A stretch of DNA of 64,000 bases, from NCBI RefSeq assembly GCF_000466985.1, contig NZ_BATC01000009.1:1-64000 (forward strand). Direction: 5' to 3'. Source of the stretch: Brevundimonas abyssalis TAR-001. GTDB taxonomy: Bacteria; Pseudomonadota; Alphaproteobacteria; Caulobacterales; Caulobacteraceae. Below are positions 33,677 to 52,566 of this stretch, one piece after another; within the stretch, counting starts at the first letter, position 1, and every line of letters starts with the position of its first letter. The position numbers and the translations under genes are program-made. The notes beneath the pieces are model-generated. The model saw only the letters and a program-made list of their open reading frames with translations, made no database searches and was not told the origin of the DNA.

Positions 33677-33752
33677 TCGCCAGTATTCGGGATTCTGGCC
33701 AGTTTCCAGCGAGTCCCCGAAGGGCTGTATCGGGTTAGATTGTCGGAAGTAA

Positions 33753-35281: not shown

Positions 35282-36552
35282 TGTCGGCACGTCCCGCTCA
35301 CGAACCGGCTGGCCCGTTTCGGCCGGCGCAAAGGTTACTCGACGATACGGCCAAACACCCTCCCGCCCTGGGCTGCCTCGCCTGTCCCGACTACAAGGCA
35401 TGCGGAGGTCTGCACATCGAGGCGGGCGTCTTCGATTGCTCCGACCTCTGCGCCTGCACCGACCCGACGAAATGCGACATGGTCTGCCGCAACAAGCCGG
35501 ACCAGTTCGTCGACCGGTATCGGGAGGTCGGCGGTTTCGACCTCGACTCGGTCCCGAGAGTGGCGGCGCGAGCGATCCCCGTCCTGCCGCCGGTCATCCC
35601 CTTGATCGGTCACAAATACAGCCGCCAGACCATCCTGGCGGAGCCGGTCGTGGCCCTTTCGCTCTATGAGCTGATCCATATGGGGACCGGGGAGCCCCAT
35701 GTCCGGACGCGCGCAGAGCTGGCGCAGCGTTTCCTCATCCCCGAAGACGCAACCCTCGTGGTCACCGGCGTGGATCGGGACGCCAAGCTTGAGGCTTGGT
35801 GGGGTTTCGAAAATCGTGAGCGCCTGATCTCGGCGCTGCGCGCCTTGGATGTCGCCCTTGTCACCGGGCCGAATTTCAGCCTGTTCACCGACACGCCGCG
35901 CCCCGACAATCTGCACAGTATCAAGCGGATCGCCCTGAGTTGGGCGGAGTTGATGGCCGGGGGCGTCGCCGCGGCCCTGCATCTCAACGCCCGGACGGAC
36001 CACGACTACAGACGATGGGCCCAATTCATTCGCGCGCGGCCGGAAGTCACGACGGTGGCATTTGAGTTCGGCACCGGCGCCGGCTACCAGGGCCGGATCG
36101 ATTGGCATGTTGAACGCCTTTGTGCGCTGGCGAAGCGCGTGGGACGGCCCCTCACCCTCATACTGCGAGGCGGGATCCCCGCGCTGGCGCGTCTGCGCGC
36201 TCACTTTGCTCAGGTCATCCTCATCGAGACCGACGCCTTCACCCGAACGCTCAAACGCCGCCGGGCCGAAATCAGCCCGGCGGGGCGTTTGCGCTGGATG
36301 CGGGTCACGACCGAGCCCGGCGCACCCTTAGACGACCTGCTCGCGCATAATATCGCTACTCGCCGCACCGACCTCATGGCCGCCTCACGGCCAACGCCGC
36401 TGCGGCTGGTCCGGGCACCGGCCAAACGGGCGACAAAGCACGCTCACGGTGAAGCCGGGCAGCGTAGCCTTATGGCGGACCTCGAGCTGTCCCTGCAGCG
36501 TGGGACTGTCGCCGCGAATATCCAAGACGTGGTCATCGCTGCGAAAGCGTAG
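35281..36552 (+). CDS. DUF4417-like protein with N-terminal cysteine cluster
   Basis: 423 residues. The N-terminal ~70 residues hold nine cysteines: GCLACPDYKACGG, then CSDLCACTDPTKCDMVCRN, spaced like an iron-sulphur or zinc cluster and reminiscent of SPASM regions. The central part (KRIALSWAELMAGGVAAALH with NARTDHDYRRWAQFI before it in fold) matches DUF4417, a family known mostly from phages and islands without known function. The last ~55 residues overlap the convergent GHKL gene by 168 bases; this basic tail (LVRAPAKRATKHAHG) looks less conserved, so its end may be fortuitous. Confidence 0.55.
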   Translation: MSARPAHEPAGPFRPAQRLLDDTAKHPPALGCLACPDYKACGGLHIEAGVFDCSDLCACTDPTKCDMVCRNKPDQFVDRYREVGGFDLDSVPRVAARAIPVLPPVIPLIGHKYSRQTILAEPVVALSLYELIHMGTGEPHVRTRAELAQRFLIPEDATLVVTGVDRDAKLEAWWGFENRERLISALRALDVALVTGPNFSLFTDTPRPDNLHSIKRIALSWAELMAGGVAAALHLNARTDHDYRRWAQFIRARPEVTTVAFEFGTGAGYQGRIDWHVERLCALAKRVGRPLTLILRGGIPALARLRAHFAQVILIETDAFTRTLKRRRAEISPAGRLRWMRVTTEPGAPLDDLLAHNIATRRTDLMAASRPTPLRLVRAPAKRATKHAHGEAGQRSLMADLELSLQRGTVAANIQDVVIAAKA

Positions 36553-37236
36553 ATCGCCGTCCTGATTGGCGAGGGCGCGAAAGATCTGGCCGATCCCCAC
36601 GCCGCAGCCGCTATCCCGTCCGAATCGCGACTCTCCGTTTGCGAGCGCATGCCGCAAGGCGTCGCCCGCGTCCCGGAGATCGGCGTAGTCTGGGTGGGTC
36701 CGCAGGCTACCCAAGACGCCGACGCCGCGGTCGCTGACGACAAGTTCGAACCCGTCCCGCGTGATGGCGAAGGCGACCACGCCGCTGCTGTAGGCTTGGC
36801 TATGCCGGAAGACGTTGTCCTGCAGCTCGCCGAATGCCCCCATGATCATGGCCGCCGTGAGGTTGGTAAAGCCCGCGCTCCGGGCGGCCTGATCGGCGCG
36901 GCTGAACCAGAGCGTCCACTGATCGGATGGGTCGCCGTCTGGGCCGAGGTGGACGAGCGGAAAGACGCCAAAGCGGGCGCTCCTCTGAAGTCCGCAGATC
37001 GCCCCGTCCCCGATCGCCCGTTCCAGGGCCTTGGCGAACGGCGCCTCCGCGGTGACCCGGGCATAGACAGCGGGGTGGAGGCGACGCGCCGACGCCAGTT
37101 CAACTAAGGGGCCGATACGGCCCGAACGGAGGACTCGGATGGGTCGGAAGCCCCCGAGCGACCCCGATTGCGCCAGGGCCAAGAGTTCATCCGTACCCGC
37201 ATAATCGCCGACAATGTTTTGTGGCTCGACCATCAT
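36385..37236 (-). CDS. GHKL (HATPase_c-like) ATP-binding protein
   Basis: 283 residues from the second ATG of MAMMVEP; CGGGAG lies six bases before it, which decides the start. The C-terminal half shows the Bergerat fold: N-box GAFGELQDNVFRHSQA, G1 VVSDRGVGVLGS and G2 RFGRDSGCGVGIGQI, then a closing strand LPGFTVSVLCR. The N-terminal 130 residues match nothing I know. No histidine kinase phosphoacceptor or MutL domain is seen. GHKL proteins paired with STAS-like partners recall anti-sigma/anti-anti-sigma pairs. 3' end overlaps the DUF4417-like gene; lies downstream of the helicase on the same strand. Confidence 0.65.
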   Translation of the reverse strand: MMVEPQNIVGDYAGTDELLALAQSGSLGGFRPIRVLRSGRIGPLVELASARRLHPAVYARVTAEAPFAKALERAIGDGAICGLQRSARFGVFPLVHLGPDGDPSDQWTLWFSRADQAARSAGFTNLTAAMIMGAFGELQDNVFRHSQAYSSGVVAFAITRDGFELVVSDRGVGVLGSLRTHPDYADLRDAGDALRHALANGESRFGRDSGCGVGIGQIFRALANQDGDLRFRSDDHVLDIRGDSPTLQGQLEVRHKATLPGFTVSVLCRPFGRCPDQPQRRWP

Positions 37237-37416
37237 GGCCATCTCCCGAAACCGGAGCGCGGTGCGAAGCCAGTGTTTGGCCCATGGGCGGAAGTGTCTG
37301 GGGCCGACTGCAAAGCCATTCCATGCCGCGAAGTGGAATGTCTCCAACCAGCTCCGGGGTTAGTGTATGCTCCTGGCGTATCTACCACATCAGGCCTTCA
37401 CGTCGTCGCTTGGATG

Positions 37417-40400
37417 TCAGTCTTCAAAGCGAAACAACAGGAGCCGTACCTGCACACGGTCAAACACGTCCCCAAAAGTTCCGCCATCATCGATCTCGCC
37501 GTCCCCGGCGAACGCTCGGAAACGAGTGTGGGCTTCGACCCGTGTACGGATGTCGTTATGGAGGTGATGGAAGGCAGTCTTTGCGGCGGAATCAAAGCCA
37601 ACCCGAAGGGCGTAAGCCAGTATGTCTATGACGGCAGGGATCTGGACGACGCCCTCCGCAGTCGGCGCAAGGCGTCGCTTCGCGAGTTCAGTGGCTGCTG
37701 TCGCTACCATATAGAGGTTGCGACCGACGACCTTGAGCACAAGGTCTCTCGATCGCTTGCAGGTCTTCACGGCGTTGGCGGCAACGCCTAGCGCCTGCTC
37801 GATCTCCGAAAAAGGACGACCGCTAATCCAAGCCTGCAGCGCCAGATTCAGGCGGTCAAACTCGGCGTCCGTGATCGGTCCACCTGTCTTTCGACCTCGC
37901 GTGACGGCCTTGATGGTGTCGAGGCCGCCCACGAGGTGTCCGGCGGCCTCCGGTTCGCGCCTGAAGAACTCGACTATCCATCTCACCCAAGCCGGGATGG
38001 TCGCGGGGAAGGCGGCGGGGTCGGTCCCGAGGCGGGCGGCGAGCACCGCCACCGCATCACGGGGGAGGCCGGTCAAGGCAGCAACGAGGCTTCCAGTCTC
38101 GTCATCTTCAGCGGGCGTGGCAGCTAGGGCCCGCTCCAGCGCAGCCACAGCGGCGTCGATGGTCTCGCCGCGCTTACGCGCAAGAAATGCGCCGAACGAA
38201 CGGCGGGTCAGGGCCACGGCCGCCGCACCGGCTTCGTCGGGTTCGCCGGACCGCATCCGGTTGACGAAATAGTCGATCCGGGCGCTCACCTGACCCAGCT
38301 GGATCTGATCGAGCATATGTTCGACTGGGTCCTCCACCAGTACGCACCGGTCGTCAGTCGGCAGGATGGACAAAAGCTTCGGATAGGCCGCGAGGGCGGG
38401 CTGCTCGGGCGTGAAGCCGATCACCGGCTCCGGCACGAGCAGGACCATGCCATTGGCCAAGAAGCCGGCGCGGCCCGCCCGCCCGGCGGCGTTTAGCAGC
38501 TCGTGCTGCTCCAGCTGTGCTCGTTCGCCGCCCGCGCCCGATCGCTTGTCGCCGGCCAGAATGGCGACCTGAGCCGGAAGGTTGATACCTTGGGCGAGCG
38601 TCGGGGTGGCGACGATAATGGCGGCGCCATCCTCCCGCCGGTAGAGCGACTCAGCTAGACGGCGTTCAAGTGGAATCATGTCGCCGTTGTGGGGCACGGC
38701 TCCGGCTTGGGGTTGGACGAGCGACTTGCCCGTCCCCAGCTCGACCGCGATGTCCGCGGCGAAGCCCTGTTCCGTCTCGGTCATCCGCCACGGCCCCACG
38801 AGACGTTCGGAAATCTTTCGCGCCGTGGACGGCGCGTGATCCGCCTGCTGGACGAAGATTATTGTCTTCAGTCCGGCCTGGCTGGCCCGTTCGGCTAGGG
38901 TGCCGGCGACGGTGTTGGCGGTCGGCTGAAGTCCGTATGCTCCCGTCGTGAGCGGTACGGTCTCATCCATCAGTTTGACCACGGCTGTGTCCGTTCCCGC
39001 GGCGGGGATCCAGTTCTGCTGCAAGCCGAACAGTGCGTGAGGGGTTGCAGGATAGGTCGGGCGCGGCACCATGCCGTTTTGGATGTCGCGGCGGAACTGA
39101 TTGAGTTCATCCTGCGGATAGACGACAACGCCCCGCGCCTGCCGGCTCGGCTTCCACGGGTCGTGAAAGAATACGGCCTGGCGGCCGGTTAGCTCGCCGA
39201 GCCATTCGGCGAGGTCGTCGCCATTTGTCAGCATGGCGGAAAGTAGCAGGAAATCTGCGTCTGGCGCCCGGCGCGCCGCATGCAGCAGGCAGAGCATGGC
39301 GTCGAGGCTGCGAGTTCCGCCGCCCCGGGGCGCGAGCAGATGGCATTCGTCGAAGACGATCAGGCCGACGTCCGACAGGTCGGCGTCCGCGAAACTGAGC
39401 ATGGCTAGTAGCCGCTCTGGCGTCATGACCTCGATCTCGCTGATGCTTGGGCCGCTGACTAGGGCGCTGAGGTCGCCGTCCGTCGAGACGACTACCTGGC
39501 CGAGATCGCTGCTGAAGGTGCGGGCGAACTCGTCCCGCAACTGGTCCACGAGGGCTAGGGTGGGTGCCAGGAAGATAACCTTGCGGCCGCTGGCGAGGGC
39601 CGCGGCGATCTTCAGCTCCGACAAGGTCGTCTTGCCCGCCCCAGTCGGCAGCACCAGGACGGCGGACACACCACGTTCGAGCAGGCCGGTCTCGATGGCG
39701 GCGCGGTGGTTGGGCCAGATGACGGGCTTGTTGACGGCGCGCCGCTTCAGCCATGGCCGCCAGGTCGCTTCCGCGACTCCAGCCGGCGCGGGTAGTCCGG
39801 CGAGGCCGAACCCCATGAACTGGCGCGAGGCGTGCTGCAGCAGGCGCGCCAAGTGCCGCGGCCCGGCATAGGTGTTGACGATCTCGATCCCCTCCCGCGC
39901 GAGGTGGGGACGCATCGCGGACAGGACTTCGACTTGGTGGAAGGTCGCCTCGGGCGTGTCGAACAGGCGGAACAGGGTCTGCGGCGTATCGCGCGAGAGC
40001 ACCGAGGCGGCGAGTTGCGCGAGACCCGCCCAGCAGAGACCGTAGAGCGTCTGTTCGGTCTGACCGATCAGATCGCCGCGGTCAGGCCGGCGTTCGGCCA
40101 GACGTGCGGCCCGGTTGACGATGGCGACCAGGTTCTCGCGTGCGAGATCGGCGACGGATTCGATCAGGGCGCCGATCAGAACCGGCCCGTCCCGCAGGGT
40201 AGCGAGCCGGCCTCCCGCCTCCCGGGCGTCCGGGCTTTGTCCCGCGATGATGAACAGAAGGGGGGCGGCAATCCGGGGGTGGATGGCGTCCGGCGTCAGC
40301 AGAGGCGCATCGCTGTCATCCCGGTCCGCGACCCGGCCAAGGATCTGATAGGCGGTGGCCGCGACGAAGGCGGCCCCGCGGCGATGGTCCTCATCCTCGG

Positions 40401-40614
40401 TGGTGTCGACAACGCCCTCATAGACGGCGGCCAGACGCAGCAAACCTTCGTACCGTTCATCGGCCGCCGCGGCGGCCTCCGGGTCCGCCGCCCGCAACCT
40501 GAGCGCCACAAGCTGGGCGTAGGTCTGGGTCAGGGCTTGGGGCAGAGTCCTTGGATCGATGTCGGCGACCCGTGGGGCGAGCCGGATGAGGCGGGCGGAT
40601 TCGGCGTCAAACAT
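37417..40614 (-). CDS. Large Ski2-like DEAD/DEAH helicase (HamB-like)
   Basis: 1065 residues. After a 300-residue helical N-terminal part come the SF2 motifs: Walker A LVLPTGAGKTT (about 321-331), DECH box FDECH (421-425), SAM (459-461), motif V ATPTLAQGINLP (669-680) and motif VI NAAGRAGRAGF (708-718). The GRAGR form and the long C-terminal region are typical of Ski2-like helicases. The gene overlaps by eight bases a nuclease-like gene upstream, the arrangement of Hachiman (HamA-HamB) and AbpAB anti-phage systems. Helicase identity is firm; defence role is inferred from the pair and the island. Confidence 0.8.
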   Translation of the reverse strand: MFDAESARLIRLAPRVADIDPRTLPQALTQTYAQLVALRLRAADPEAAAAADERYEGLLRLAAVYEGVVDTTEDEDHRRGAAFVAATAYQILGRVADRDDSDAPLLTPDAIHPRIAAPLLFIIAGQSPDAREAGGRLATLRDGPVLIGALIESVADLARENLVAIVNRAARLAERRPDRGDLIGQTEQTLYGLCWAGLAQLAASVLSRDTPQTLFRLFDTPEATFHQVEVLSAMRPHLAREGIEIVNTYAGPRHLARLLQHASRQFMGFGLAGLPAPAGVAEATWRPWLKRRAVNKPVIWPNHRAAIETGLLERGVSAVLVLPTGAGKTTLSELKIAAALASGRKVIFLAPTLALVDQLRDEFARTFSSDLGQVVVSTDGDLSALVSGPSISEIEVMTPERLLAMLSFADADLSDVGLIVFDECHLLAPRGGGTRSLDAMLCLLHAARRAPDADFLLLSAMLTNGDDLAEWLGELTGRQAVFFHDPWKPSRQARGVVVYPQDELNQFRRDIQNGMVPRPTYPATPHALFGLQQNWIPAAGTDTAVVKLMDETVPLTTGAYGLQPTANTVAGTLAERASQAGLKTIIFVQQADHAPSTARKISERLVGPWRMTETEQGFAADIAVELGTGKSLVQPQAGAVPHNGDMIPLERRLAESLYRREDGAAIIVATPTLAQGINLPAQVAILAGDKRSGAGGERAQLEQHELLNAAGRAGRAGFLANGMVLLVPEPVIGFTPEQPALAAYPKLLSILPTDDRCVLVEDPVEHMLDQIQLGQVSARIDYFVNRMRSGEPDEAGAAAVALTRRSFGAFLARKRGETIDAAVAALERALAATPAEDDETGSLVAALTGLPRDAVAVLAARLGTDPAAFPATIPAWVRWIVEFFRREPEAAGHLVGGLDTIKAVTRGRKTGGPITDAEFDRLNLALQAWISGRPFSEIEQALGVAANAVKTCKRSRDLVLKVVGRNLYMVATAATELAKRRLAPTAEGVVQIPAVIDILAYALRVGFDSAAKTAFHHLHNDIRTRVEAHTRFRAFAGDGEIDDGGTFGDVFDRVQVRLLLFRFED

Positions 40615-41377
40615 CGATTTTGGCCCACACCAGAACGGCGAAAGCTTGGAACCACGCCCGCATATCTGCCAGGGGCATGGTCGAGCCGGACCGCTGCGGA
40701 CGCGCGCCGAGGCCGTCGTAGTGAGAGAAGAGGTCGATGCAGGCGTCGGCGTCGAAGATGCCAGGCTCGACAGTCAAAGCCGCGTCGAACAGGAGTGGCC
40801 GACCGTATACGATCGTCGAATAGGCGTTCGCCCGCTCTTGGGCGTTCAGATTGAAGCGGGCCAGCAGGGCGATCGCGCCTTGGATCAGCTGGGAGTCCCG
40901 CTTTCCGTCATAGTAGCCCCTAAAGGCCTTTATAACCTTGTCGCGGAAAACCTGCCGAGCGTTGGTGGTACATTTGTATTCGTAGATTGTAGCCGCCGTC
41001 AGACGTCGGTTGGGCTCGTCCCAAGCTACCTTGAGACCGTCTAGCCCCTGTTGCGTCGCCTTGGTGTGGGGTTCGAGGACGACCTCGCCCGGGGCGGCCT
41101 TCTGCAGGGCCACGATCCAGCAGATAATCTCGAACAGGAGGCCGTCCCGGTGCCAAGGGTCACCCGCCGGAAAGAGCTGGGCGCGGATCTGGGCCTTCAT
41201 TTCGGCGTCGGAGGGGAGGTCAAGTGTCATTGCGCCCGCGAGGGCGTCGGCAGCGTCCGCGGCACGGCCTTGGAGCACAACGGCGACCAGACCGGCCAAG
41301 CCGTCCAGATCGGCCACTACCCATTGAACGCCCCCACAGTGAGGCTCGGCGGGTTGGTTGGTGATGGTCAGAGGCAT
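40607..41377 (-). CDS. PD-(D/E)XK nuclease-like protein (HamA/DUF1837-like)
   Basis: 256 residues from the ATG at 41377 (MPLTITNQPAEPHCGG); a GTG at 41425 would add 16 residues, and neither has a good ribosome binding site. Candidate catalytic residues are Glu83 in GLLFEIICW, Asp113 in QQGLDGLKV and Glu133-x-Lys135 in TIYEYKC, the E-D-ExK layout of this nuclease fold. FRDKVIKAFRGYYDGK follows. In Hachiman, HamA is an inactive-until-triggered nuclease released by its helicase. Similarity is by motif layout; other restriction-like families cannot be excluded. Confidence 0.6.
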   Translation of the reverse strand: MPLTITNQPAEPHCGGVQWVVADLDGLAGLVAVVLQGRAADAADALAGAMTLDLPSDAEMKAQIRAQLFPAGDPWHRDGLLFEIICWIVALQKAAPGEVVLEPHTKATQQGLDGLKVAWDEPNRRLTAATIYEYKCTTNARQVFRDKVIKAFRGYYDGKRDSQLIQGAIALLARFNLNAQERANAYSTIVYGRPLLFDAALTVEPGIFDADACIDLFSHYDGLGARPQRSGSTMPLADMRAWFQAFAVLVWAKIDV

Positions 41378-41401
41378 GAGGCCAGCTTGGCGGTTTATGA
41401 T

Positions 41402-41459
41402 GCGATAGCACCGCCGCTTGATCACTAATAGGTTGGTGTGTCGAACGCGGTGCGATCGC
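41402..41459 (-). promoter_or_regulatory. Inverted repeat upstream of the nuclease-helicase pair
   Basis: GCGATAGCACCGC (41402-41414) and GCGGTGCGATCGC (41447-41459) are complementary at 12 of 13 positions, separated by 32 bases, and lie 25-82 bases before the ATG at 41377. Probable operator or long-range hairpin. No clear -35/-10 pair is seen. Confidence 0.35.
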
Positions 41460-41841: not shown

Positions 41842-42201
41842 TCAGCACCAAAGGACACGGCCTCTCACGAGATTAAAGTGACTGCCGCAGCCGGTCCGCC
41901 GCCAGATCGAGGGCCGCACGGTCGGCCGCGCCTCCCGATCCCAGGCGACGGACCAACGCGGTCGACGATTGCCGAAGAAGCGTAGGTTGAGGGTCTCGCC
42001 ACAGCCGCATGGACAGAGCATCGTTCCGAAGGCCGGCGCGCCCGCCTGAAGGCTGACGTAGAGTCGGCGACGTCGGAGCTTTCGCGGTCGTTCGGCGACG
42101 AGCTCCAGTTGAACCCGCGGCCGGCACCAGCGCTCGCGCGCCCGGGAAAAATCACCGGTGGCCCGCTGAAACCATCGGCGCATGTTCCCGAGCGGATTCA
42201 T
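41842..42201 (-). CDS. DUF6527 family protein
   Basis: 119 residues, basic N-terminal half (about 20 Arg/Lys in the first 50), then TMLCPCGCGETLNLRF with a CPCGC zinc-knuckle-like motif, and a conserved end RRTGCGSHFNLVRGRVLWC. This is the pattern I know as DUF6527, a recurring last gene in bacterial ubiquitin-like operons. The start overlaps the E1-like stop (ATGA), so expression is coupled. Zinc binding and a role in target choice are guesses. Confidence 0.7.
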   Translation of the reverse strand: MNPLGNMRRWFQRATGDFSRARERWCRPRVQLELVAERPRKLRRRRLYVSLQAGAPAFGTMLCPCGCGETLNLRFFGNRRPRWSVAWDREARPTVRPSIWRRTGCGSHFNLVRGRVLWC

Positions 42202-43574
42202 GCCGCGGCCGTCTCGATACGCCCACAGCCGATCGGAGGTGTGCAGTCACCGCGGCCCACCAAGGGGGCCAACTCCAGATCGGGATCTCCGTCCCCGCGA
42301 TGAATGGTGCGTCCATGGGTAAGAAGCAGCTTCTGGACGGCGACGTCCGCATTGTTCACCGTGCGGAACGGATGGAGCCGCGCGAGCAACTCGTTCACCG
42401 CCGAAGCGGCAGCCAGGGTGTTGACGCTGATCACCGCCGGGCTGTCGACCCGGACACCGCGGATGTAGCCGCGGCGAACCTGATCTTCGTAGAAGGGCTG
42501 ATCCGTCCGCTTCAAATACTCCGCCCTGAGGCCTTCATCTGAATAGACTCCCCGGCTCTTGAGGCTCGCTCCGCCGGGCTGCAGATAGTGAACCGCGGCC
42601 GAGACGCTGGCGACGCCGCCCTGCCCGTCCGCGTCGAGACGCACGCCGATATCAAGGTAGGGCAGAGTGTAGAAGGTGGCGACCCGGTTGAGAGTGTCTC
42701 GGCCCTCAAGACTGTCGACGCAGCCGATCAGAACGTCGGCGATGCTGATCAGCTGGATAGCCTCGACCGTATCGACCCGACCTTGGAAATCCACGACATC
42801 GGTGCCCAAACCCATCCGATCCAAGTGACCACGCATCATCAGGGCCTTGTTCGCGCCGACCTCCGCGTCCGAGCGGGTGGAGCCCCAGATCCGATTGAGA
42901 TTACGCCCTTCCACCACATCCGGATCGATCAACAGGATGCGGCCGACACCCAGGCGCGCCAGCATTTCGACCGTGGGGCTGCCGGTGCCGGAGATCCCCA
43001 CGACGGCGACGGTGAGCGCCCGCAACAGGTTGGTCGTCCGATCGCCGAACACCTGTCGGTGGCGCTGGTCGAAGTCGTTGGCCGCTGCCAGCGGGTCGGG
43101 CCAGAAGACGAGATCGTCTCCGACCACGGCGACCCGGTCCACCGCGCGGAAAGTTCCGTCATCCATGACCAAGCGAGCCAAAATTTCGCCGTCGGGCAGC
43201 ATCACGGCGCTGATGTGGGGTCCGGGAACCTTGAGCGACACAGCCGCGAACAGTTCGCGATCGGAAGCGTCGTCAAGAGCCGAGAAGCCGCGATAGCCGT
43301 TGGGGTGGGAATGTATCTTGAGCACCTTCATTCCCCCGGCTCCGGCCTCGGGCAACAGCGCCCTCAGCCGGCGGGTCGGCCAAGTGACCGTGGCCTCGGC
43401 GCGAACGCACTCCGCGTACGGAATCTCGGTGATCCGGTGCAACAAATGCGCCCGCCGCGTCGCGGGTGCGGTTTGGCCAAGCAGGCCGACCGCGACGGCC
43501 TCAAGATCGCTGCCGTCAAAGAGGTGATGCTGGAGCCGCCGATGCTGGGCTGCGGTCAGTCGAAAGGTGTCCAT
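42198..43574 (-). CDS. JAB deubiquitinase-like / ThiF E1-like fusion
   Basis: 458 residues from the ATG at 43574; AAGGAG eight bases before it decides this start over longer options. Residues 1-150 are a JAB/JAMM domain with intact metal motif KIHSHPNGYRGFSALDD (His88, His90, Ser98, Asp101). Residues ~180-450 are a ThiF/E1 adenylation domain: VVGISGTGS (192-199), LIDPDVVEGRNLNRIWGSTR and IGCVDSLEGRDTLNR. Where E1-like proteins of this type commonly show PGG-C-L-x-C, this one reads PGGASLKS (333-340), with serines at 337 and 340. It would activate the Ub-like protein; the JAB part may trim or remove it. Confidence 0.85.
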   Translation of the reverse strand: MDTFRLTAAQHRRLQHHLFDGSDLEAVAVGLLGQTAPATRRAHLLHRITEIPYAECVRAEATVTWPTRRLRALLPEAGAGGMKVLKIHSHPNGYRGFSALDDASDRELFAAVSLKVPGPHISAVMLPDGEILARLVMDDGTFRAVDRVAVVGDDLVFWPDPLAAANDFDQRHRQVFGDRTTNLLRALTVAVVGISGTGSPTVEMLARLGVGRILLIDPDVVEGRNLNRIWGSTRSDAEVGANKALMMRGHLDRMGLGTDVVDFQGRVDTVEAIQLISIADVLIGCVDSLEGRDTLNRVATFYTLPYLDIGVRLDADGQGGVASVSAAVHYLQPGGASLKSRGVYSDEGLRAEYLKRTDQPFYEDQVRRGYIRGVRVDSPAVISVNTLAAASAVNELLARLHPFRTVNNADVAVQKLLLTHGRTIHRGDGDPDLELAPLVGRGDCTPPIGCGRIETAAA

Positions 43575-43587
43575 CAGGGGCGCTCCT

Positions 43588-43971
43588 TCAGCGTTTGCGG
43601 AATTCATGAGTGAGCCAGCCCCGCACCCGACGAAGATGTGTGGCCAGAGTGTCGACACCTGATCGCCATGCGTAGTGCCGACTCCATTGCTGGAAGGTCC
43701 GACCGTCGATCGCGAGGGCGCTCAGGTTGTTGATGGCCTTGCCGTCAACGCGGGCGAGGGGCGGGTCGAAATAGGCCATGTCGATCTGGCCCGGCGGATA
43801 GGTGTCCATCCGGATCGCCACCGTGGCGCTGCTGGACGTGTAGCCGGTCGGGACCGGGTGGTTGTGGATCAAGATCCACCGGGACGGACCCGAGCGGATA
43901 GCCTCCCAGGACAATCCGAGCGCATCGAGCGCCCGGACGTCCTCGGAACCGAGTTCGAAGTCCCGGCGCAT
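43588..43971 (-). CDS. E2-like protein (prokaryotic E2 family E)
   Basis: 127 residues. RWILIHNHPVPTGYTSSSAT, then YPPGQIDMAYFDPPLARVDG and IDGRTFQQWSRHYAW...GVDTL follow the E2-fold pattern of the prokaryotic E2 family E found in multiubiquitin operons. The protein contains no cysteine at all, so a classical thioester intermediate is impossible. Histidine in WSRH and several serines are the remaining candidates. It lies four bases after the Ub-like gene and 13 bases before the E1-like start. Confidence 0.8.
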   Translation of the reverse strand: MRRDFELGSEDVRALDALGLSWEAIRSGPSRWILIHNHPVPTGYTSSSATVAIRMDTYPPGQIDMAYFDPPLARVDGKAINNLSALAIDGRTFQQWSRHYAWRSGVDTLATHLRRVRGWLTHEFRKR

Positions 43972-43975
43972 GGGC

Positions 43976-44344
43976 TCAGCCCTCCGTCTCGTCGAGCGGG
44001 AAGGTCTCGAAGACTTCGATGCCGGGCTCGCCCAGGTCCACCACTTGATCGAGGCCGATGGCCACGTAGGTGCCGCCGCGCACCCGCTTTTCGATCTCGT
44101 AGTGTTCCGGGGGTGTCTTGCCCGCCTTCACCAGAAGATCGCGGCCGGTGACACGCCGCGCCTGAAACAGGTGGTGGTCGTGGTCGATCTTGACCTTGTA
44201 CGTCTTGGCGGGCGGCGGGGGCCGGTTTTCGCGTCCATAGATTTCTACCTCGACCACATCGACGAGTGGGCTCGAGGTATCGGTGCTGTCGACGCCGTCT
44301 TGGGCGCGGGTCTGGATGAGCGAAGGGGAGGAACGGGCGTCCAT
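43976..44344 (-). CDS. Multiubiquitin-family Ub-like protein
   Basis: 122 residues from the ATG at 44344 (GAGG six bases upstream; a longer in-frame start at 44422 would overlap the operator). Residues 1-45 look disordered; then PAKTYKVKIDHDHHLFQA, RVTGRDLLVKAGKTPPEHYE and RGGTYVAIGLDQVVDLGEPG form one beta-grasp domain of the multiubiquitin family. Only one copy is present. The end is FETFPLDETEG, so the last residue is a single glycine. It would be the modifier joined to targets by the E1/E2-like proteins downstream. Confidence 0.82.
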   Translation of the reverse strand: MDARSSPSLIQTRAQDGVDSTDTSSPLVDVVEVEIYGRENRPPPPAKTYKVKIDHDHHLFQARRVTGRDLLVKAGKTPPEHYEIEKRVRGGTYVAIGLDQVVDLGEPGIEVFETFPLDETEG

Positions 44345-44406
44345 GTTGACCTCGTATTGACATCGACGAGGCCACCGCGGCCCGTCTTCGCTTGATATGC
44401 GAAGCG

Positions 44407-44456
44407 GTGCTAAGTTTGTCAAGCGCTCGCTTAGCGGCGCTTGACGAATTTAGCAC
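44407..44456. promoter_or_regulatory. Mirrored divergent promoters inside an inverted-repeat operator
   Basis: GTGCTAAGTTTGTCAAGCG (44407-44425) and CGCTTGACGAATTTAGCAC (44438-44456) are complementary at 16 of 19 positions around a 12-base centre that carries another TTAGC. Each arm contains a -35 box: TTGACA on the minus strand (44421-44416) with CATATC 17 bases later, and TTGACG on the plus strand (44441-44446) with TACCCT about 16 bases later. One regulator, probably the adjacent XRE protein, can therefore block both the ubiquitin-like operon and its own operon. Confidence 0.6.
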
Positions 44457-44500
44457 AAGCCCTACCCTGCGTCACCCACAACTGCGCCTCCAGGTTCGCG

Positions 44501-44869
44501 ATGAAGCCCCCGACAACAAAGGAAGACACCACGCCCGGCCTAGGCAGATACTTGAAAGACATAAGAAATTCCCGAGGCTACTCACTCCGCGAAGTCGAGC
44601 GGCTGACCGGCGGCAAAATTTCCAACGGCTATCTCAGTCAACTCGAGAACGGAGAAATCGCGCGTCCGTCCGCCGTAATGCTGCACCGTCTGGCGGCCAC
44701 CTACGGGGTGGACTACGCCGTGTTGATGGAGCGGGCCGGCTTCGTCAGCGAGTCGGAAACGCCGGCGAACCGTGCGCCGACCTCCGTATTGGGGGAACTC
44801 ACTCCCGACGAAGAAGAGCAGCTCCTGAACTTCCTTGGCTATCTTCGGAGTCAGAAGGCAAGAAAGTGA
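44501..44869 (+). CDS. XRE family transcriptional regulator
   Basis: 122 residues from ATG 44501; an in-frame TTG at 44441 lies inside the -35 box and is rejected. The HTH is LGRYLKDIRNSRGYSLREVE with GYLSQLENGEIARPSAVMLH. A tail follows (LTPDEEEQLLNFLGYLRSQK). It overlaps the next gene by TGATG. XRE-IrrE/ImmA pairs in mobile elements work as repressor plus protease that inactivates it; the palindrome at 44407-44456 is the likely binding site. Confidence 0.88.
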   Translation: MKPPTTKEDTTPGLGRYLKDIRNSRGYSLREVERLTGGKISNGYLSQLENGEIARPSAVMLHRLAATYGVDYAVLMERAGFVSESETPANRAPTSVLGELTPDEEEQLLNFLGYLRSQKARK

Positions 44870-45783
44870 TGCTCGTCGACGACTGTTCCATTCCCTCGCA
44901 GGAGGCTGAGGCCATTCGATCCGAGGCCGGCCGCCTGTTGCGCGAGGCCGGAGCGGTCGGCGTTTTCCCGACGCCGGTCGACGAAATCATGCGGACCGCT
45001 AGAATTCAGGTTGTACCCATCAGCCTCGACGACAATTATTTGGCGCTGCTTCGCCGCAAGGCCGCCCAGGCAGGCGACGCTCTGCTAAGCGCGCTGAGCA
45101 AAGTATGGGGCGTCTTCGATCCCAAGGCGCGGATCGCCTTCATCGATCCCGAGACGCCCAAGGAAAAACTACCGTTCCTCAAATTGCACGAAGGCGGCCA
45201 CGCGGTCCTGCCATGGCAGTCGATCTTCGGAATCTTCGAGGACTGCCGCAAGACGCTCGACCCTGAGGTCAAGCAGCAGTTCGAGCGGGAAGCCAACGTC
45301 TTCGCCTCCGAGGTTCTCTTTCAACTCGACGCCTTCACCTCTGAGGCTGACGATCATGCGTTCGGGATCGGAGTGCCGTTGCGGCTGGCTCGGCGTTACG
45401 GCGCGTCGGTCTACGCGACCATCCGACGCTACGTGTCCCACAGCGACAAGACCTGCGCCGTTGTGGTGCTGAACCCCGCCGAGCCCGCCGAAATGGTCGG
45501 CTATTTCTGCACCGTGAGGCGAGTGATCGTCTCTGCGGCGTTCGCCCGTCGTTTCTCGAATATCGCCTGGCCCCAGACCGTCACGGCCGACGACGCCCTC
45601 GGCCGCCTCGTCCCGGTGAATCGAATGACCGGCCCAAGAACCCTGAGGATCACAGATGCCAACGGCGACCGGCAGGAGATGATCGCCGAAGCGTTCAAGA
45701 CGCCGCACCAGATTTTCGTTCTGATCAACGCCACCGCCAAGCCCGCTCGCCGGATCATCCTGCCAGCAAGCGTCACTTGCTGA
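44869..45783 (+). CDS. ImmA/IrrE-like metallopeptidase
   Basis: 304 residues starting at the ATG in the TGATG overlap. FLKLHEGGHAVLPWQ holds the zinc motif HEGGH (about residues 106-110), and FEREANVFASEVLF supplies the third ligand and the usual A-N-x-F-A segment of ImmA/IrrE proteins. A C-terminal domain of about 130 residues with EMVGYFCTVRRVIVSAAFAR is larger than in minimal ImmA. In ICEBs1 ImmA cleaves the ImmR repressor; here the same switch would open the divergent promoters. That role is inferred from pairing. Confidence 0.85.
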   Translation: MLVDDCSIPSQEAEAIRSEAGRLLREAGAVGVFPTPVDEIMRTARIQVVPISLDDNYLALLRRKAAQAGDALLSALSKVWGVFDPKARIAFIDPETPKEKLPFLKLHEGGHAVLPWQSIFGIFEDCRKTLDPEVKQQFEREANVFASEVLFQLDAFTSEADDHAFGIGVPLRLARRYGASVYATIRRYVSHSDKTCAVVVLNPAEPAEMVGYFCTVRRVIVSAAFARRFSNIAWPQTVTADDALGRLVPVNRMTGPRTLRITDANGDRQEMIAEAFKTPHQIFVLINATAKPARRIILPASVTC

Positions 45784-45790
45784 CGATCCG

Positions 45791-46138
45791 ATGGCACAGA
45801 TCCTCGGCTATGTGACTCCGGACGAACGCGATCGATTCGAGGCCTATGCCCGCAGCCACGGCCTCCACGTTACCGCTCTCGCGAACCTTCTGATCGCCCG
45901 CGAACTCCGCGCTGGCCGTCTGTCCGACCTGATCGAGCGCTTTGACATTCGCCCGTTGCCCGCTCGGACTAAGATCGTCGCCCACACTCCGGACGCGGCG
46001 ACCAAGGCGGCGTTCGCCCTCCGGGCCGCAGAGGCCGGTGTGAAACCCTCGCGCGCCGCGGCGGTTCTCTTTCGAGCCGAGCTGCACGAGCGATGGTTGG
46101 AGACCCATGTCCTCATTAACTATTTTGACTCAACTTGA
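45791..46138 (+). CDS. Small protein with two similar helical halves
   Basis: 115 residues. VTPDERDRFEAYARSHGLHV (8-27) and HTPDAATKAAFALRAAEAGV (65-84) resemble each other, and the following segments ANLLIARELRAGRL and AAVLFRAELHERWL do too. This internal duplication could be a single-chain version of a ribbon-helix-helix-like dimer, but I do not recognise the family. Seven bases after the metallopeptidase stop, so part of the operon. Confidence 0.6.
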   Translation: MAQILGYVTPDERDRFEAYARSHGLHVTALANLLIARELRAGRLSDLIERFDIRPLPARTKIVAHTPDAATKAAFALRAAEAGVKPSRAAAVLFRAELHERWLETHVLINYFDST

Positions 46139-46240
46139 GTCCAACGGTAGGGTCTGGGCAGATTCTCGCTTGCCGTGCCTGTCCATCCGATTAGGGTCGC
46201 GCCCGAGGGCTATTCGGGCTGTGCGAGGGGGCCGCCGCCA

Positions 46241-46699
46241 ATGATATCCACGGGACAGGCCACGTCTAAGTTCCGGCTAACCCAATTGGCCTTGCGCGCC
46301 GCCGTCGAGTTGGAACGTGCGCGCGCCGGCGGTCAGCCCCGCCGGGAGCCGTTGGACGCTCTGTCGCAGGCGCTTCTGCAGACGAGCGGATCGGACGACG
46401 GCGCAGCGCCTTTCCGTTTCGTAGAACCAGGTTTCTACCAGCCGCTGCAAAGGCTGTACTATGATCACGAATCGGTTCCCGCTTCCGACGTGGAGCATAT
46501 TCAAGCTCTAATTCGGCGGATCAGTGAGGCCCTCGCCCAAGTTGCGGACGGCGGCCGCGCCGGTACCGATGCGCTGATCCGCTTCTGCGTGGCTCTCCAC
46601 CAGGAACTGATCGAAGAACAGACGGCGGAGGATGCGCTTGTCGTCCATGAAGGACGAGCCCACGGCCACGGAGCTACGCCTCGCCTCTGCGCGGCGTAG
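46241..46699 (+). CDS. Unknown protein in the XRE-IrrE operon
   Basis: 152 residues from ATG 46241. Helical, with FRLTQLALRAAVELERARAG and VEHIQALIRRISEALAQVAD. No signal, membrane segment or known motif. Its end overlaps the metalloprotease start by up to 68 bases, an unusually long same-strand overlap, so either this C-terminus or the next start is misjudged. Confidence 0.5.
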   Translation: MISTGQATSKFRLTQLALRAAVELERARAGGQPRREPLDALSQALLQTSGSDDGAAPFRFVEPGFYQPLQRLYYDHESVPASDVEHIQALIRRISEALAQVADGGRAGTDALIRFCVALHQELIEEQTAEDALVVHEGRAHGHGATPRLCAA

Positions 46700-47873
46700 A
46701 GTTCGCGCGTTCGTCGATCAGATCGCCGAGCTCGAGGCTTCGGACTTTCCGCACCGCGACGGTTTGGACGCCCTGGGAGTCATCCGGGCGGAGCTTGAGT
46801 ATTATCTGAACGACTTCCTAGGAGGTTTGCCACCCACCCTGAGCGACCCTGTGGTGGATGAAATATGCGCCGAGATCAGTTTCACGGTGTCCAAATATAC
46901 CGACGTCTTGGGGTTCATCCTTCGCTCCACCAATGTGCGCAACGCCTTCGAGGTGCAGTTCCCGCTGAAACGCCTGGTGGCGCAGGTGATCTCGCCCGAG
47001 GCCCGGCTCATCATGTCTTCGGAATGGAACTTCGTTCCTTTCACCTATCCGATGACCTTGGACCTGCTGCCCGGCTTCGTCCTTGTCGGGGCCCCGGCAC
47101 CGGAATCGGGCAATGTGCTGCTTTTTCCGCTCGCCGGGCACGAGATTGGGCATTCGGCGTGGCGACAGCATGAACTGAAGGCCGCGCTGCAAACGGCCGT
47201 CACCCGCGCGGTGGCCGGTGCGATCGACGCCGATCCCGAAGCAAAGGCGCGGATCTTGGATCGCGCCGGGGAGACGCTGCCGGATCTCCAGAACGTCGTA
47301 CTGGGGACCGCGTTGAAGCAGCTTGAGGAGATCTTCTGCGACCTCTTCGGCCTCTATGTTTTTGGCGCGTCGTACGCCCACGCCTACGAGTATTTCCTGG
47401 CGCCCGGCGGCGGCAGCCGCAGCCCCTTCTATCCCAGCAGTTCTGAGCGGGTCGGCTATATGCTGACTGCGGCGAAGGCGCTCGGTATCGATCTGGAGCC
47501 AGGCCTTTTCGGGCGTTGGCGACAGTCCACGCAGCGCAAGGGCGTCGACCCGGATGCCCTCGCCTTCGCCGACGCCGCAGTCGCTGCAGTCTTTCCTGCC
47601 ATGATGCAGAGAACCTTCGACCTGCTCCTCGACCGAAAGGTCTCGCAGCCCCGTAGCGAGGTCGTGGAACGAATTATTGGGGCTTTCGGCCGTCGGGTCC
47701 CAGACGACGACGGCGCTACTTTCCCGGAGATTGTCACCGCCGGCTGGCTCTATCTGCGCCGTCACGGCGGGCTTTCCGAAGAAGCCGATCGGGCCGAATA
47801 CGACATGCTCGGCGAGCTCATGCTGAAGTCCATCGAGGTGGCCGAGTTTCGCGAAAGGCTCGCTGATGCTTAG
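46632..47873 (+). CDS. HEXXH zinc metalloprotease-like protein of unknown family
   Basis: 413 residues. FPLAGHEIGHSAWRQHELKA holds HEIGH at about residues 173-177; LEEIFCDLFGLYVFG some 60 residues later gives a plausible third ligand Glu/Asp. The rest is helical and cytoplasmic, with no signal peptide. The exact start is unclear: ATG 46632 is too close to GGAGG, TTG 46638 has better spacing, ATG 46647 is also possible. The next gene overlaps by eight bases. I do not recognise the family; a protease in a regulated defence-like operon could be an effector or activator. Confidence 0.65.
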   Translation: MRLSSMKDEPTATELRLASARRRVRAFVDQIAELEASDFPHRDGLDALGVIRAELEYYLNDFLGGLPPTLSDPVVDEICAEISFTVSKYTDVLGFILRSTNVRNAFEVQFPLKRLVAQVISPEARLIMSSEWNFVPFTYPMTLDLLPGFVLVGAPAPESGNVLLFPLAGHEIGHSAWRQHELKAALQTAVTRAVAGAIDADPEAKARILDRAGETLPDLQNVVLGTALKQLEEIFCDLFGLYVFGASYAHAYEYFLAPGGGSRSPFYPSSSERVGYMLTAAKALGIDLEPGLFGRWRQSTQRKGVDPDALAFADAAVAAVFPAMMQRTFDLLLDRKVSQPRSEVVERIIGAFGRRVPDDDGATFPEIVTAGWLYLRRHGGLSEEADRAEYDMLGELMLKSIEVAEFRERLADA

Positions 47874-48480
47874 CGCCGATCAGATCGCCGACGCCCTCAA
47901 CCTCGAGGCCACCCATCCTGATCGCTTGACTGTCGTTCCCAAGCCCGACGACGCGGCGCTGCGTGATCGCGCCGCCACTTCCATCGACCTGCGTCTCGGT
48001 CGCTGGTTTCGGGCGTTCAAGCAAACTCGCGCGCAGGCTTATCCACTCGCCGTGGTTCACGCCGATGCGACCGACGACCCGACCGAGGTTTCCCGCACCA
48101 AGCAGCATTTCGTACCGTTCGGGAAGAAGTTCGTTCTGCATCCTGGCCGGTTCGTCTTGGGCGCGACCTTGGAGTGGCTGCAACTCCCGGGAAGCCTGTC
48201 CGGCTATGTGACCGGAAAATCCTCGCTTGGTCGCCACGGCCTCGTGATCGAGACCGCGGCGGGCATCCATCCTCACTTCTCCGGCTGCTTGACCCTTGAG
48301 CTCGCAAACGTGGGCGAGGTGCCCCTCGCCATCTACCCGGGAATGACGGTCTGTCAGGTTTTCCTTCACCGAACGGAGTCGGGGAAGACGGCCGATCTCG
48401 GGATGTTCTCCGGGCGCCGCAAACCCGTACTCTCGCCCCCGAAGCCCGATGAGATCTTCAGTCGTCTCAGCGACGCCTAA
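47866..48480 (+). CDS. dCTP deaminase
   Basis: 204 residues. VTGKSSLGRHGLVIETAAGI, HPHFSGCLTLELANVGEVPL and YPGMTVCQVFLHR match the trimeric dCTP deaminase/dUTPase superfamily; the S-S-x-G-R and the catalytic Glu in TLEL or ETAAG are present. It converts dCTP to dUTP. Chromosomal dcd is usually elsewhere and shorter (~185 residues); deaminases of this family are known anti-phage effectors that drain dCTP during infection. Its place at the end of an inducible island operon makes that role plausible here. Confidence 0.82.
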   Translation: MLSADQIADALNLEATHPDRLTVVPKPDDAALRDRAATSIDLRLGRWFRAFKQTRAQAYPLAVVHADATDDPTEVSRTKQHFVPFGKKFVLHPGRFVLGATLEWLQLPGSLSGYVTGKSSLGRHGLVIETAAGIHPHFSGCLTLELANVGEVPLAIYPGMTVCQVFLHRTESGKTADLGMFSGRRKPVLSPPKPDEIFSRLSDA

Positions 48481-49131: not shown

Positions 49132-50364
49132 TCAGCCCGCGTGTCGGCTGGTGCGGCGGTCGAAGGCGTCGCTGACGTCAGACTGGTAGTCGGGCCGATG
49201 GTGGCCGTAGACCTTTTCCAACGTGCGCGGGGTCATACCCAAGTACTGGGCAGCGCGCCGCAGCGGTACGTCAGCCTCCATCAACCAAGTTGCCGCCGTA
49301 TGCCGGTGCCAGTGCGGTGTGATGTCGGGGGAAAGGCCAGCGTCGACAATGATTCCGCGGTAGCCCTTGCGGATTCGGCCCCGGATCGCCCGACCACCGT
49401 GGTGCAGAACGGTTTCGATCGGCGGGAGGCCGGCCTTGGCACGCTCGACGTTCAGCGCATTATCCTGTCGGCGCCAACGCACCATGTGCCGCAGCAGACG
49501 CTTCGGAATACGGCACATGGGGCGACGCTTTGTGGGCTTGTCGGCCTCGCGCCTGCCGCGCCGAAAGATCCAGCCCTTGTCCAGGTCGACCCAGGCGCAG
49601 TCATCCGATGGCTTCCAGCGAAGCTTCGGAAGAACGCCGGGGCGAGTGCCCGAGTACACCCCCAGCAACACGAAACGCACGAGGTGAGCACGGTTGGAGC
49701 GAGTCGACGTCACCGTGGCCTGCCAGCGTCCCGCCTTCAGCCGCCAACCCCTGGCGGCTCGCAGAATTGCCGCGACCTGCTGACGGCTGAGTGCGTCACG
49801 CGGACCGACCGCGGGAGCCGGATAGGTGAAGACAGGCTTGCGGGTGAGGCGGTGCTCCCCGTCCCAGTACGTTGTGGCCGCAGAAAGGTCCTCGAGCTCG
49901 CGACGCGCCCCCGAAGGACTGACCTTGCGCGCCTTGGCGGGGTCCTTGTACGTCTTCACAGGCTGCGTCGTACGATGGACCACATAGGCCTCGCAGGTGC
50001 TGCGCTTGATGTCGCCGAGCGTCTTGCCGCTCCACCAGTCCAGCACGGCCGTCAAGCGGGCGCGGGCCGATCCCGGATCAGCAAGAAAGGGAGCCTTCTC
50101 GCGCGCATAAAGAGCGATGACCTCGTCGACGAGCACCTCTTCGGGCTCGAGCGCGCGATCCTTGGGTCGGCTCGAAGCGGCTCGCTCGGTCAGGTACTCC
50201 GCGAGTACGGCTTCAGCCTCTGCAAGGCGGTCCGCGCCGCAACCTGTGCTGACGTTCTTGTCGCCGTCCCGGATAAAGTAGACGGCCGCAAGCGGTCGGC
50301 CGGACTTGGGGTCAATCCGGCCAGTGCGGAGGTAGAGCCGAGCGCCCTTTCGCGGCCTACCCAT
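49132..50364 (-). CDS. Tyrosine integrase 1
   Basis: 410 residues from ATG 50364 (MGRPRKGARLYLRTGR). C-terminal catalytic domain: Arg in LLGVYSGTRPGVLPKLRW, HWHRHTAATWLMEADVPLRR with the H-x-x-R/H core, YLGMTPRTLEKVYGHH with the tyrosine nucleophile. N-terminal arm and core-binding domains are present (ALEPEEVLVDEVIALYARE). It overlaps by 175 bases its excisionase-like partner, an arrangement common in alphaproteobacterial islands. Complete, no frame break. Confidence 0.9.
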   Translation of the reverse strand: MGRPRKGARLYLRTGRIDPKSGRPLAAVYFIRDGDKNVSTGCGADRLAEAEAVLAEYLTERAASSRPKDRALEPEEVLVDEVIALYAREKAPFLADPGSARARLTAVLDWWSGKTLGDIKRSTCEAYVVHRTTQPVKTYKDPAKARKVSPSGARRELEDLSAATTYWDGEHRLTRKPVFTYPAPAVGPRDALSRQQVAAILRAARGWRLKAGRWQATVTSTRSNRAHLVRFVLLGVYSGTRPGVLPKLRWKPSDDCAWVDLDKGWIFRRGRREADKPTKRRPMCRIPKRLLRHMVRWRRQDNALNVERAKAGLPPIETVLHHGGRAIRGRIRKGYRGIIVDAGLSPDITPHWHRHTAATWLMEADVPLRRAAQYLGMTPRTLEKVYGHHRPDYQSDVSDAFDRRTSRHAG

Positions 50365-50626: not shown

Positions 50627-50677
50627 ATATAGGCTCCTCCTTTGGATTGCGGCGCCCGGCGCCTGGCTCGGATAATT

Positions 50678-52480: not shown

Positions 52481-52566
52481 CGGTCCTCCTTTGATGCATA
52501 CAGCTCCTTTCATTCTGTTTGATGCCCAGAATGAGCGATGGCGTGTATTCTGCGTATCGCGCATAA

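What the first reader, a model, noticed from the sequence alone, without database searches (positions are those of the whole stretch)
41842..44344. Complete bacterial ubiquitin-like operon: Ub-like, E2-like, JAB-E1 fusion, DUF6527
Four coupled genes on one strand form a full conjugation and deconjugation set. The Ub-like protein has the multiubiquitin-family beta-grasp domain in a single copy with a C-terminal glycine; the JAB metal motif HSHP-x6-S-x2-D is intact. Operons of this composition were predicted by comparative genomics of prokaryotic ubiquitin-like systems and related ones act against phages. The target and the role of the DUF6527 protein remain open.
Basis: partly seen in the sequence, partly recalled or inferred. 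Interest (0 to 1): 0.8.

Follow-up and report, generated by a model that had tools for sequence, protein, structure and literature searches.

The report
Bub-type bacterial ubiquitin-like operon
This is a new copy of a recently described bacterial operon that makes and handles a ubiquitin-like protein tag; here it sits beside a switch of the kind that turns defence genes on after DNA damage, so it is a good example of a known system rather than a new one.

Summary
On the minus strand, 44344-41842, lie four coupled genes: a single Multi_ubiq-type Ubl ending in Gly, a Prok-E2_E protein, a JAB-E1 fusion and DUF6527. Solved structures identify it: Citrobacter BubCD (E=7e-67), BubB (5e-24) and BubA (2e-6). 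It is a new member of the published Bub (bacterial ubiquitination-like) family. One correction: the E2 has no cysteine, no E2 column among 92 aligned sequences holds Cys in more than 15%, and the E1 lacks the MoeB/ThiF-type catalytic cysteine. If it conjugates, it is not by the canonical thioester relay; the invariant Trp-Ser-Arg-His of the E2 is the candidate site. JAB residues are intact. On the other arm CapH-CapP runs into a dCTP deaminase gene. DUF6527 also accompanies a second, JAB-less E1 operon type, so its job is probably not JAB's. Target and role remain open; a 2026 paper says phage protection by Bub has not been shown.

The parts
43976..44344 (-). BubA-like Ubl, 122 aa, one detected beta-grasp domain (about residues 48-116), ends ...ETEG with Gly122 as last residue
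   Evidence: Pfam Multi_ubiq 9.1e-12; Citrobacter BubA 155-229, PDB 9ea8, E=2.2e-6; Gly at this column in 91% of 101 aligned domains
43588..43971 (-). BubB-like E2/UBC-fold protein, 127 aa, no cysteine; W96-S97-R98-H99 the same in 92 of 92 sequences
   Evidence: Pfam Prok-E2_E 3e-29; PDB 9eae BubB E=4.9e-24; no Cys; conservation; model pLDDT 94.5, VIA Z 21.3, 1.1 A over 125 residues to 9eae_C
42198..43574 (-). BubCD-like fusion, 458 aa: N-terminal JAB/JAMM peptidase (E25, H88, H90, S98, D101) and C-terminal ThiF/E1 adenylation domain without the canonical catalytic Cys or zinc CxxC pairs
   Evidence: Citrobacter BubCD, PDB 9ea4, E=6.6e-67 over residues 6-408; ThiF 4.7e-26; conservation; comparison with E. 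coli MoeB
41842..42201 (-). DUF6527 protein (BubE by recall), 119 aa: C63-P-C65-G-C67 and C105 (zinc-site-like), S98 in 91 of 91 and H108 in 90 of 91 sequences
   Evidence: Pfam DUF6527 2.2e-20; conservation; model core pLDDT blocks 86-95 from residue 31, no convincing fold match
44407..44456 (.). two facing operator-like sites, CGCTTGACAAACTTAGCA (-) and CGCTTGACGAATTTAGCA (+); 20-nt arms 90% complementary, 10 nt apart; each holds a TTGAC(A/G) that could be a -35 element
   Evidence: genome-wide count
44501..44869 (+). CapH-like HTH repressor, 122 aa from ATG 44501 (start chosen by me), divergent to the operon
   Evidence: PADLOC capH 5.3e-9 and Pfam HTH_31 5.3e-12, both on the longer ORF 44441-44869
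44869..45783 (+). CapP-like M78/ImmA-IrrE metalloprotease, 304 aa (start chosen by me), motif HEGGH
   Evidence: PADLOC capP 2e-16 and Pfam Peptidase_M78 2.6e-5, both on the longer ORF 44392-45783; sequence
45791..48480 (+). rest of the CapH-CapP arm: 45791-46138, 46175-46699, 46632-47873 (unknown; HEIGH motif in the last) and 47866-48480 dCTP deaminase-like
   Evidence: DCD 4.4e-30; same six-gene order next to a Bub operon in L020

Best explanation
It is a CapH/CapP-controlled Bub operon. Normally CapH sits on the two facing operators between 44407 and 44456 and keeps both divergent arms low. DNA damage (by phage or otherwise) activates CapP, which cleaves CapH, so both arms are induced. BubC (the E1 half) adenylates the free Gly122 terminus of the Ubl; because this Ubl ends at the glycine it should need no trimming, unlike the Ubl-E2 fusions of many relatives. 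The Ubl is then passed, with the cysteine-free E2, to a protein target. The relay uses no catalytic cysteine; the best guess for the E2 site is Ser97/His99 of the invariant WSRH motif, as an oxyester or as a general-base site. The fused JAB removes the tag. DUF6527 is a second, zinc-site-bearing enzyme or adaptor shared with JAB-less E1 operons, most likely a second hydrolase for Ubl linkages (S98/H108) or a target-specificity factor. Shown here: gene identities, JAB residues, missing cysteines, operator-like repeat and its recurrence. Inferred: repression, induction, conjugation, chemistry, target, defence role.
For: Sequence matches to solved Citrobacter BubCD, BubB and BubA; E2 model Z 21.3 to BubB. 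Depositors used BubCD D104A, the residue that aligns with JAB Asp101. H88, H90, S98, D101 at 100% and E25 at 98% of 93 sequences. No E2 column with more than 15% Cys; W96-S97-R98-H99 in 92 of 92. In the E1 the MoeB Cys187 position aligns to Q365 (Q 43, L 22, R 21 of 93), MoeB's first zinc pair to S337/S340, MoeB Cys128 to C285. 42 of 91 loci have the Ubl in one frame with the E2, 49 of 91 do not. CapH and CapP hits and published association: 219 of 544 Bub operons with CapW or CapH+CapP (PMC13373217). Operator-like pair: 16-base core without mismatch only here in 2.98 Mb; upstream sites scoring 15 or more of 18 in 6 of 8 strong-CapH loci and 0 of the other 83.
Against: No experiment. The consensus was drawn from the window, L018 and L016, so only 3 of the 5 other strong-CapH loci (L013, L020, L083) are independent support, L012 and L072 scored 14 and 13, and sites scoring up to 15 also occur elsewhere in loci (L074). 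No sigma-70 consensus promoter was found there. Prok-JAB is below its Pfam cut-off. Ser97 as the acceptor is not tested; an E2 without Cys could be a non-catalytic UEV-like scaffold (TSG101 UEV next after BubB, Z 8.2). Foldseek alone gave BubB as the only E2-model match at E up to 0.001, and Z below 8 may mean only a common arrangement (note). DUF6527 has no fold match, so a hydrolase reading rests on conserved residues. The two primary papers on Bub (three look-ups) could not be read.
Confidence: 0.85

Rival explanations
1. Same operon, but the E2-like protein is a non-catalytic UEV-like partner: the E1 adenylate reacts directly with a target lysine positioned by BubB, with no covalent Ubl-enzyme intermediate at all.
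For: E2 has no Cys and, after BubB, resembles TSG101 UEV best (Z 8.2, 3.2 A over 104 residues; tied with active E2s within 1 Z); E1 also lacks a Cys relay.
Against: WSRH is the same in 92 of 92 sequences, more than a scaffold would seem to need; counted back from the conserved W-x-P that follows, Ser lies 9 residues before the Trp in the family consensus against 8 for the Cys of canonical E2s (recalled); the window itself has a shorter loop (5).
Confidence: 0.3
2. The operon is a stress-response system, not phage defence: DNA damage induces tagging of host proteins for repair or dormancy.
For: Published Bub operons have not been shown to protect against phage (PMC13373217, passages); the adjacent regulator pair is of a DNA-damage type.
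Against: Neighbouring Hachiman-like helicase (HamB 1.2e-40) and dCTP deaminase suggest a defence island; accessory spread, 1 of 36 other same-genus genomes.
Confidence: 0.3
3. The operon is a sulfur-carrier-type system: ThiF-like adenylation for cofactor chemistry rather than protein tagging.
For: ThiF is the best Pfam family of the E1 half.
Against: E2 and JAB partners; closest solved relatives are BubCD and BubB rather than ThiF/MoeB; no zinc CxxC or sulfur-relay Cys in the E1.
Confidence: 0.03

Closest known systems
Citrobacter Bub operon (BubA, BubB, BubCD; PDB 9ea4, 9ea5, 9ea8, 9eae, 9eav)
   Same: Same three protein families, same JAB-E1 fusion, E2 with WSRH, E2 structures 1.1 A apart
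   Different: Citrobacter numbering (BubA 155-229, BubB chain 235-361) implies a longer BubA joined to BubB; the window has one Ubl domain, separate from the E2 and ending at Gly. The last residue of the Citrobacter BubA construct and its DUF6527 were not seen here
Bil (BilABCD) operons
   Same: Ubl + E1 + E2 + JAB logic; window Ubl weakly matches Ubl-BilA 8u38 (E=0.0014)
   Different: By recall, Bil has separate E1 and JAB and canonical cysteines; the window's E1/E2 lack them and DUF6527 is added
Type II CBASS Cap2/Cap3
   Same: E1-like activation plus JAB-like removal; the E1 half hits PADLOC E1-E2 (4.4e-12) and Cap2 (E=0.0033)
   Different: No CD-NTase among the neighbours scanned; JAB-E1 fusion instead of E1-E2 fusion
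DUF6791-ThiF / DUF6527 operons (second type, L123-L128)
   Same: CapP- and CapH-like genes nearby in 4 of 6 (some weak), multi-ubiquitin Ubl, ThiF E1, DUF6527 with CxCxC...PS...CxSH
   Different: No JAB motif and no Prok-E2_E hit; the Ubls read end in Ser or Ala, not Gly

Membership tests
Bub operon | E1 with N-terminal JAB homologous to BubCD | tested here: met
   E=6.6e-67 to PDB 9ea4 over residues 6-408; JAMM residues intact
Bub operon | Prok-E2_E partner homologous to BubB | tested here: met
   E=4.9e-24; Z 21.3
Bub operon | Ubl homologous to BubA, Gly at its end | tested here: met
   E=2.2e-6; ETEG end
Bub operon | DUF6527 gene in the operon (that the published definition asks for it is recalled) | tested here: met
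   found in 90 of 92 loci
Bub operon | Ubl conjugation activity | not testable with these tools
   needs biochemistry
CapH/CapP regulator | HTH repressor and M78 protease genes next to a defence-type operon | tested here: met
   homology and position only
CapH/CapP regulator | protease activated by ssDNA cleaves the repressor | not testable with these tools
   stated for CapH+CapP in PMC13373217, not for this pair
CapH/CapP regulator | repressor binding site at the controlled promoter | tested here: inconclusive
   strong inverted repeat, core exact only here in the genome, recurrent with CapH; binding not tested
canonical E1-E2 thioester cascade | catalytic Cys in E2 | tested here: not met
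   no Cys in the window E2; no column over 15% Cys in 92 sequences
canonical E1-E2 thioester cascade | catalytic Cys in E1 at the MoeB Cys187 / ThiF Cys184 site | tested here: not met
   no Cys between residues 286 and 443 of the window E1 and Q365 at the MoeB site; the MoeB alignment is weak in that loop and the ThiF one failed there
Hachiman (neighbour) | HamB helicase plus HamA (DUF1837) | tested here: inconclusive
   HamB 1.2e-40 and PDC-M23B 2.7e-34 on the helicase core; the 272-aa partner has no HamA or DUF1837 hit

The most novel reading that the evidence does not exclude
A cysteine-free ubiquitin-like pathway in which DUF6527 is a new class of small zinc-dependent Ser/His enzyme acting on Ubl linkages, shared by JAB-containing and JAB-less E1 operons; and in this genome one CapH double operator switches two arms together, Bub on one side and a dCTP deaminase operon on the other.
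Probability: 0.2. Interest if true: 0.6.

Novelty: new member of a known kind. Interest (0 to 1): 0.35.

Why it matters
It gives a compact, four-gene, single-Ubl Bub operon in which the tag already ends at its glycine, so conjugation can be tested without a maturation step. The conserved absence of cysteines makes the chemistry question sharp (Ser97/His99 mutants), the operator-like pair gives a direct test of CapH control, and DUF6527 in two operon types points to a function that JAB does not cover.

Tried and rejected
Canonical thioester cascade: rejected, no cysteine at the E2 or E1 sites. Sulfur-carrier ThiF/MoeB function: rejected on partners and closest relatives. tRNA-Val attachment repeat for an island: no shared word of 14 bases or more between 33700-33900 and the rest of the window. 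Viral contigs for the E1: 5 pattern matches, none a relative. Phage records for DUF6527: no match at E up to 0.01. DUF6527 fold: Foldseek best E 0.45, VIA best Z 3.6; absence of a match is not evidence of a new fold. DUF6527 by profile against PDB sequences: nothing below E 1.2. The E1-to-ThiF global alignment failed in the crossover region and was not used; the MoeB one was used with caution. NCBIfam has no hit for the Ubl, E2 or DUF6527 at E up to 0.01, and PADLOC none at E up to 0.1.

Literature: the Bub mechanism paper and the Ubl structure paper (PMC12885553 = doi 10.1038/s41594-025-01696-1, and PMC12145246) are not held (three look-ups); I saw them only as references in PMC13373217 and PMC12687455 (passages). 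I recall, without being able to check, that Bub is reported to use oxyester rather than thioester intermediates and that DUF6527 is called BubE; no conclusion above rests on this, but it makes it likely that the missing cysteines are already in print. The listings showed no other paper that, by title or abstract start, deals with Bub chemistry or DUF6527 (8 of 10 paper searches used); a 2006 comparative-genomics paper on prokaryotic ubiquitin-like systems (PMC1779556) was seen in a listing only.
Full report
What is there. The minus strand from 44344 to 41842 carries four tightly coupled genes: a 122-aa Ubl whose last residue is Gly122, a 127-aa E2-like protein, a 458-aa JAB-E1 fusion and a 119-aa DUF6527 protein whose ATG overlaps the E1 stop. 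Pfam puts all but the JAB half over the curated cut-off; Prok-JAB reaches 20 bits against 25, yet its metal motif is complete.

What it is. Sequence search of solved structures names it: Citrobacter BubCD (9ea4, E=6.6e-67, residues 6-408), BubB (9eae, E=4.9e-24), BubA (9ea8, E=2.2e-6). DUF6527 has no solved relative by sequence. The operon is therefore a member of the Bub (bacterial ubiquitination-like) family. The primary papers are not held. PMC13373217 (passages) states that its authors identified hundreds of Bub operons, that 219 of 544 are associated with CapW or CapH+CapP, and that Bub operons have not been shown to protect a host against phage.

Relatives. A scan of genome contigs with an alignment of 12 E1 proteins gave 397 relatives; the best 80 were kept. 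The closest are three Phenylobacterium MAGs (69, 62 and 61% identity); others span several phyla by their record titles. With 11 plasmid loci and the window this makes 92 loci: Ubl found in 91, E2 in 91, DUF6527 in 90 (L084 begins inside the E1 at its contig end; DUF6527 was not found in L013 and L066). The system is accessory: Prok-E2_E occurs in 1 of 36 other same-genus genomes (2 of 61 genomes of that search, the window's own included) and in 4 of 385 genomes drawn from the class, own included, one of the four under the cut-off. The genome shows no second Bub E1; its next match covers only the adenylation core (57 bits).

Missing cysteines. The window E2 has none, and no column of 92 aligned E2 sequences holds Cys in more than 15%; Y58, M65, W96, S97, R98 and H99 are the same in all 92. 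Its model (pLDDT 94.5) matches BubB at Z 21.3 (1.1 A, 125 residues), then TSG101 UEV at Z 8.2 (3.2 A, 104 residues) and active E2s at 7.8 and below; Foldseek by itself gave BubB as the only match at E up to 0.001. The E1 half has no Cys where MoeB has Cys187: the aligned residue is Q365 (Q 43, L 22, R 21 of 93), with Y370, P379 and V381 nearby the same in all 93; MoeB's first zinc pair falls on S337 and S340, and C285 matches MoeB Cys128. The MoeB alignment is weak in that loop. Two plasmid relatives, L015 and L121, keep CxxC pairs. So the canonical thioester relay is not available; what replaces it is inferred, not shown.

JAB and tail. H88, H90, S98 and D101 are at 100% and E25 at 98% in 93 sequences. 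Asp101 aligns with the residue changed in BubCD D104A. The Ubl terminus is a conserved glycine, mostly in (T/D)EG or similar (Gly in 91% of 101 aligned domains, inner repeats included; ends listed). In 42 of 91 loci the Ubl shares one open frame with the E2 and would have to be cut after the glycine; in 49 of 91 it is separate, ending at the glycine or some residues beyond. 81 of 91 loci have a single detected Ubl domain. The window is of the simplest kind: one domain, separate, ending at Gly.

DUF6527. C63, P64, C67, W83, P97, S98 and C105 are the same in 91 of 91 sequences, C65 and H108 in 90 of 91. The model's core is confident (blocks 86-95 from residue 31), with no convincing fold match. 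In 385 class genomes DUF6527 has 12 matches in 11 genomes. Three lie in operons of the window's type (own, G124, G164). Six lie beside an E1 of another type, without a JAB motif (profile and motif on all six; N-terminal DUF6791 shown by Pfam on the two tested). Of the three weaker ones, two gave no match to my profile (L129, L130) and one (L117) was not examined. Five Ubls of the second type that I read end in Ser or Ala, four of them found by profile and one by position only. DUF6527 thus goes with two E1 types of which one has no JAB, so it probably does a job of its own. A control genome, Caulobacter vibrioides, also has DUF6527 but no Prok-E2_E; its locus was not available to me.

Control. 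Divergent to the operon lie a CapH-like HTH gene (44501-44869) and a CapP-like M78 protease with HEGGH (44869-45783). An M78 match lies within 4.5 kb upstream, on either strand, in 46 of 91 loci with a located Ubl, and both genes in 22 of 91; some scores are weak and 17 of the 91 have at most 3 kb of upstream sequence. Between the arms is an inverted repeat with 20-nt arms, 18 of 20 complementary, 10 nt apart; 40 mononucleotide shuffles of the region gave at most score 9 against 14. Each arm holds a (T/C)GCTTGAC-type 18-mer. In the 2.98-Mb genome the 16-base core occurs without mismatch only at these two places, once elsewhere with one mismatch and four times with two. In the 91 loci, upstream sites matching 15 or more of 18 occur in 6 of the 8 loci whose CapH scores 131 bits or more and in none of the other 83; three of the six (window, L018, L016) helped to define the consensus, the two misses (L012, L072) score 14 and 13, and away from the upstream region the best site scores 15 (L074) among the loci listed. 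L016 carries the pair beside an E1 34% identical to the window's. No sigma-70 consensus promoter was found.

The other arm. CapH and CapP continue into three unknown genes and a dCTP deaminase-like gene ending at 48480. The same six-gene order flanks the Bub operon of L020. A dCTP deaminase-like gene lies in 5 of 91 non-window loci, 1.30 Mb in all; all 21 genomes searched have such a family match, mostly as two matches in one long frame plus a weaker one, so the excess is only suggestive.

Verdict. A well-formed new member of a known family, with a corrected view of its chemistry and an added control region. Identity is near certain; the switch is likely; the chemistry, the role of DUF6527, the target and a defence role are inferences to be tested.

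Noticed in passing
L123-L128 (regions of G437, G324, G064, G380, G398, G329): A second operon type with DUF6527: Multi_ubiq-like Ubl ending in Ser/Ala, ThiF E1 without JAB motif (N-terminal DUF6791 in the two tested by Pfam), CapP/CapH-like genes nearby in 4 of 6.
   Followed up: partly
44501-48480: CapH-CapP in one run with three unknown genes and a dCTP deaminase-like gene; same order in Phenylobacterium L020; dCTP deaminase-like genes in 5 of 91 non-window Bub loci.
   Followed up: partly
37417-41425 (-): Hachiman-like pair directly downstream of the Bub operon: HamB-like helicase (1.2e-40; PDC-M23B 2.7e-34 also) and a 272-aa partner without family hits that holds a possible D-x(n)-E-x-K nuclease motif (my reading). 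Neither gene was found in the other 91 Bub loci as fetched.
   Followed up: partly
36385-37347 (-): Protein with a weak HATPase_c_2 match (17.1 bits, below cut-off) next to the Hachiman-like genes.
   Followed up: no
49132-52570 (-): Phage-integrase-type recombinase gene and a second, weaker integrase match (24 bits, below cut-off) beside an ORF without a hit, perhaps a split gene. With tRNA-Val at 33753 this hints at an acquired region, but no attachment repeat was found, and G+C (about 0.65-0.73 before 33 kb, 0.61-0.68 after) stays low to the window's end, past the integrases.
   Followed up: partly
L118:3803-4845: Shinella plasmid: truncated Bub E1 (231 aa, C-terminal half only) still followed by DUF6527; no Ubl or E2 profile match in the 9.3-kb stretch.
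   Followed up: no
L121:1032-5127: Mesorhizobium plasmid: Ubl-E2-E1-phosphotransferase-DUF6527 run whose E1 keeps two CxxC pairs; its Prok-E2_E protein has FSWH in place of WSRH and one Cys elsewhere, in LDCFW.
   Followed up: no
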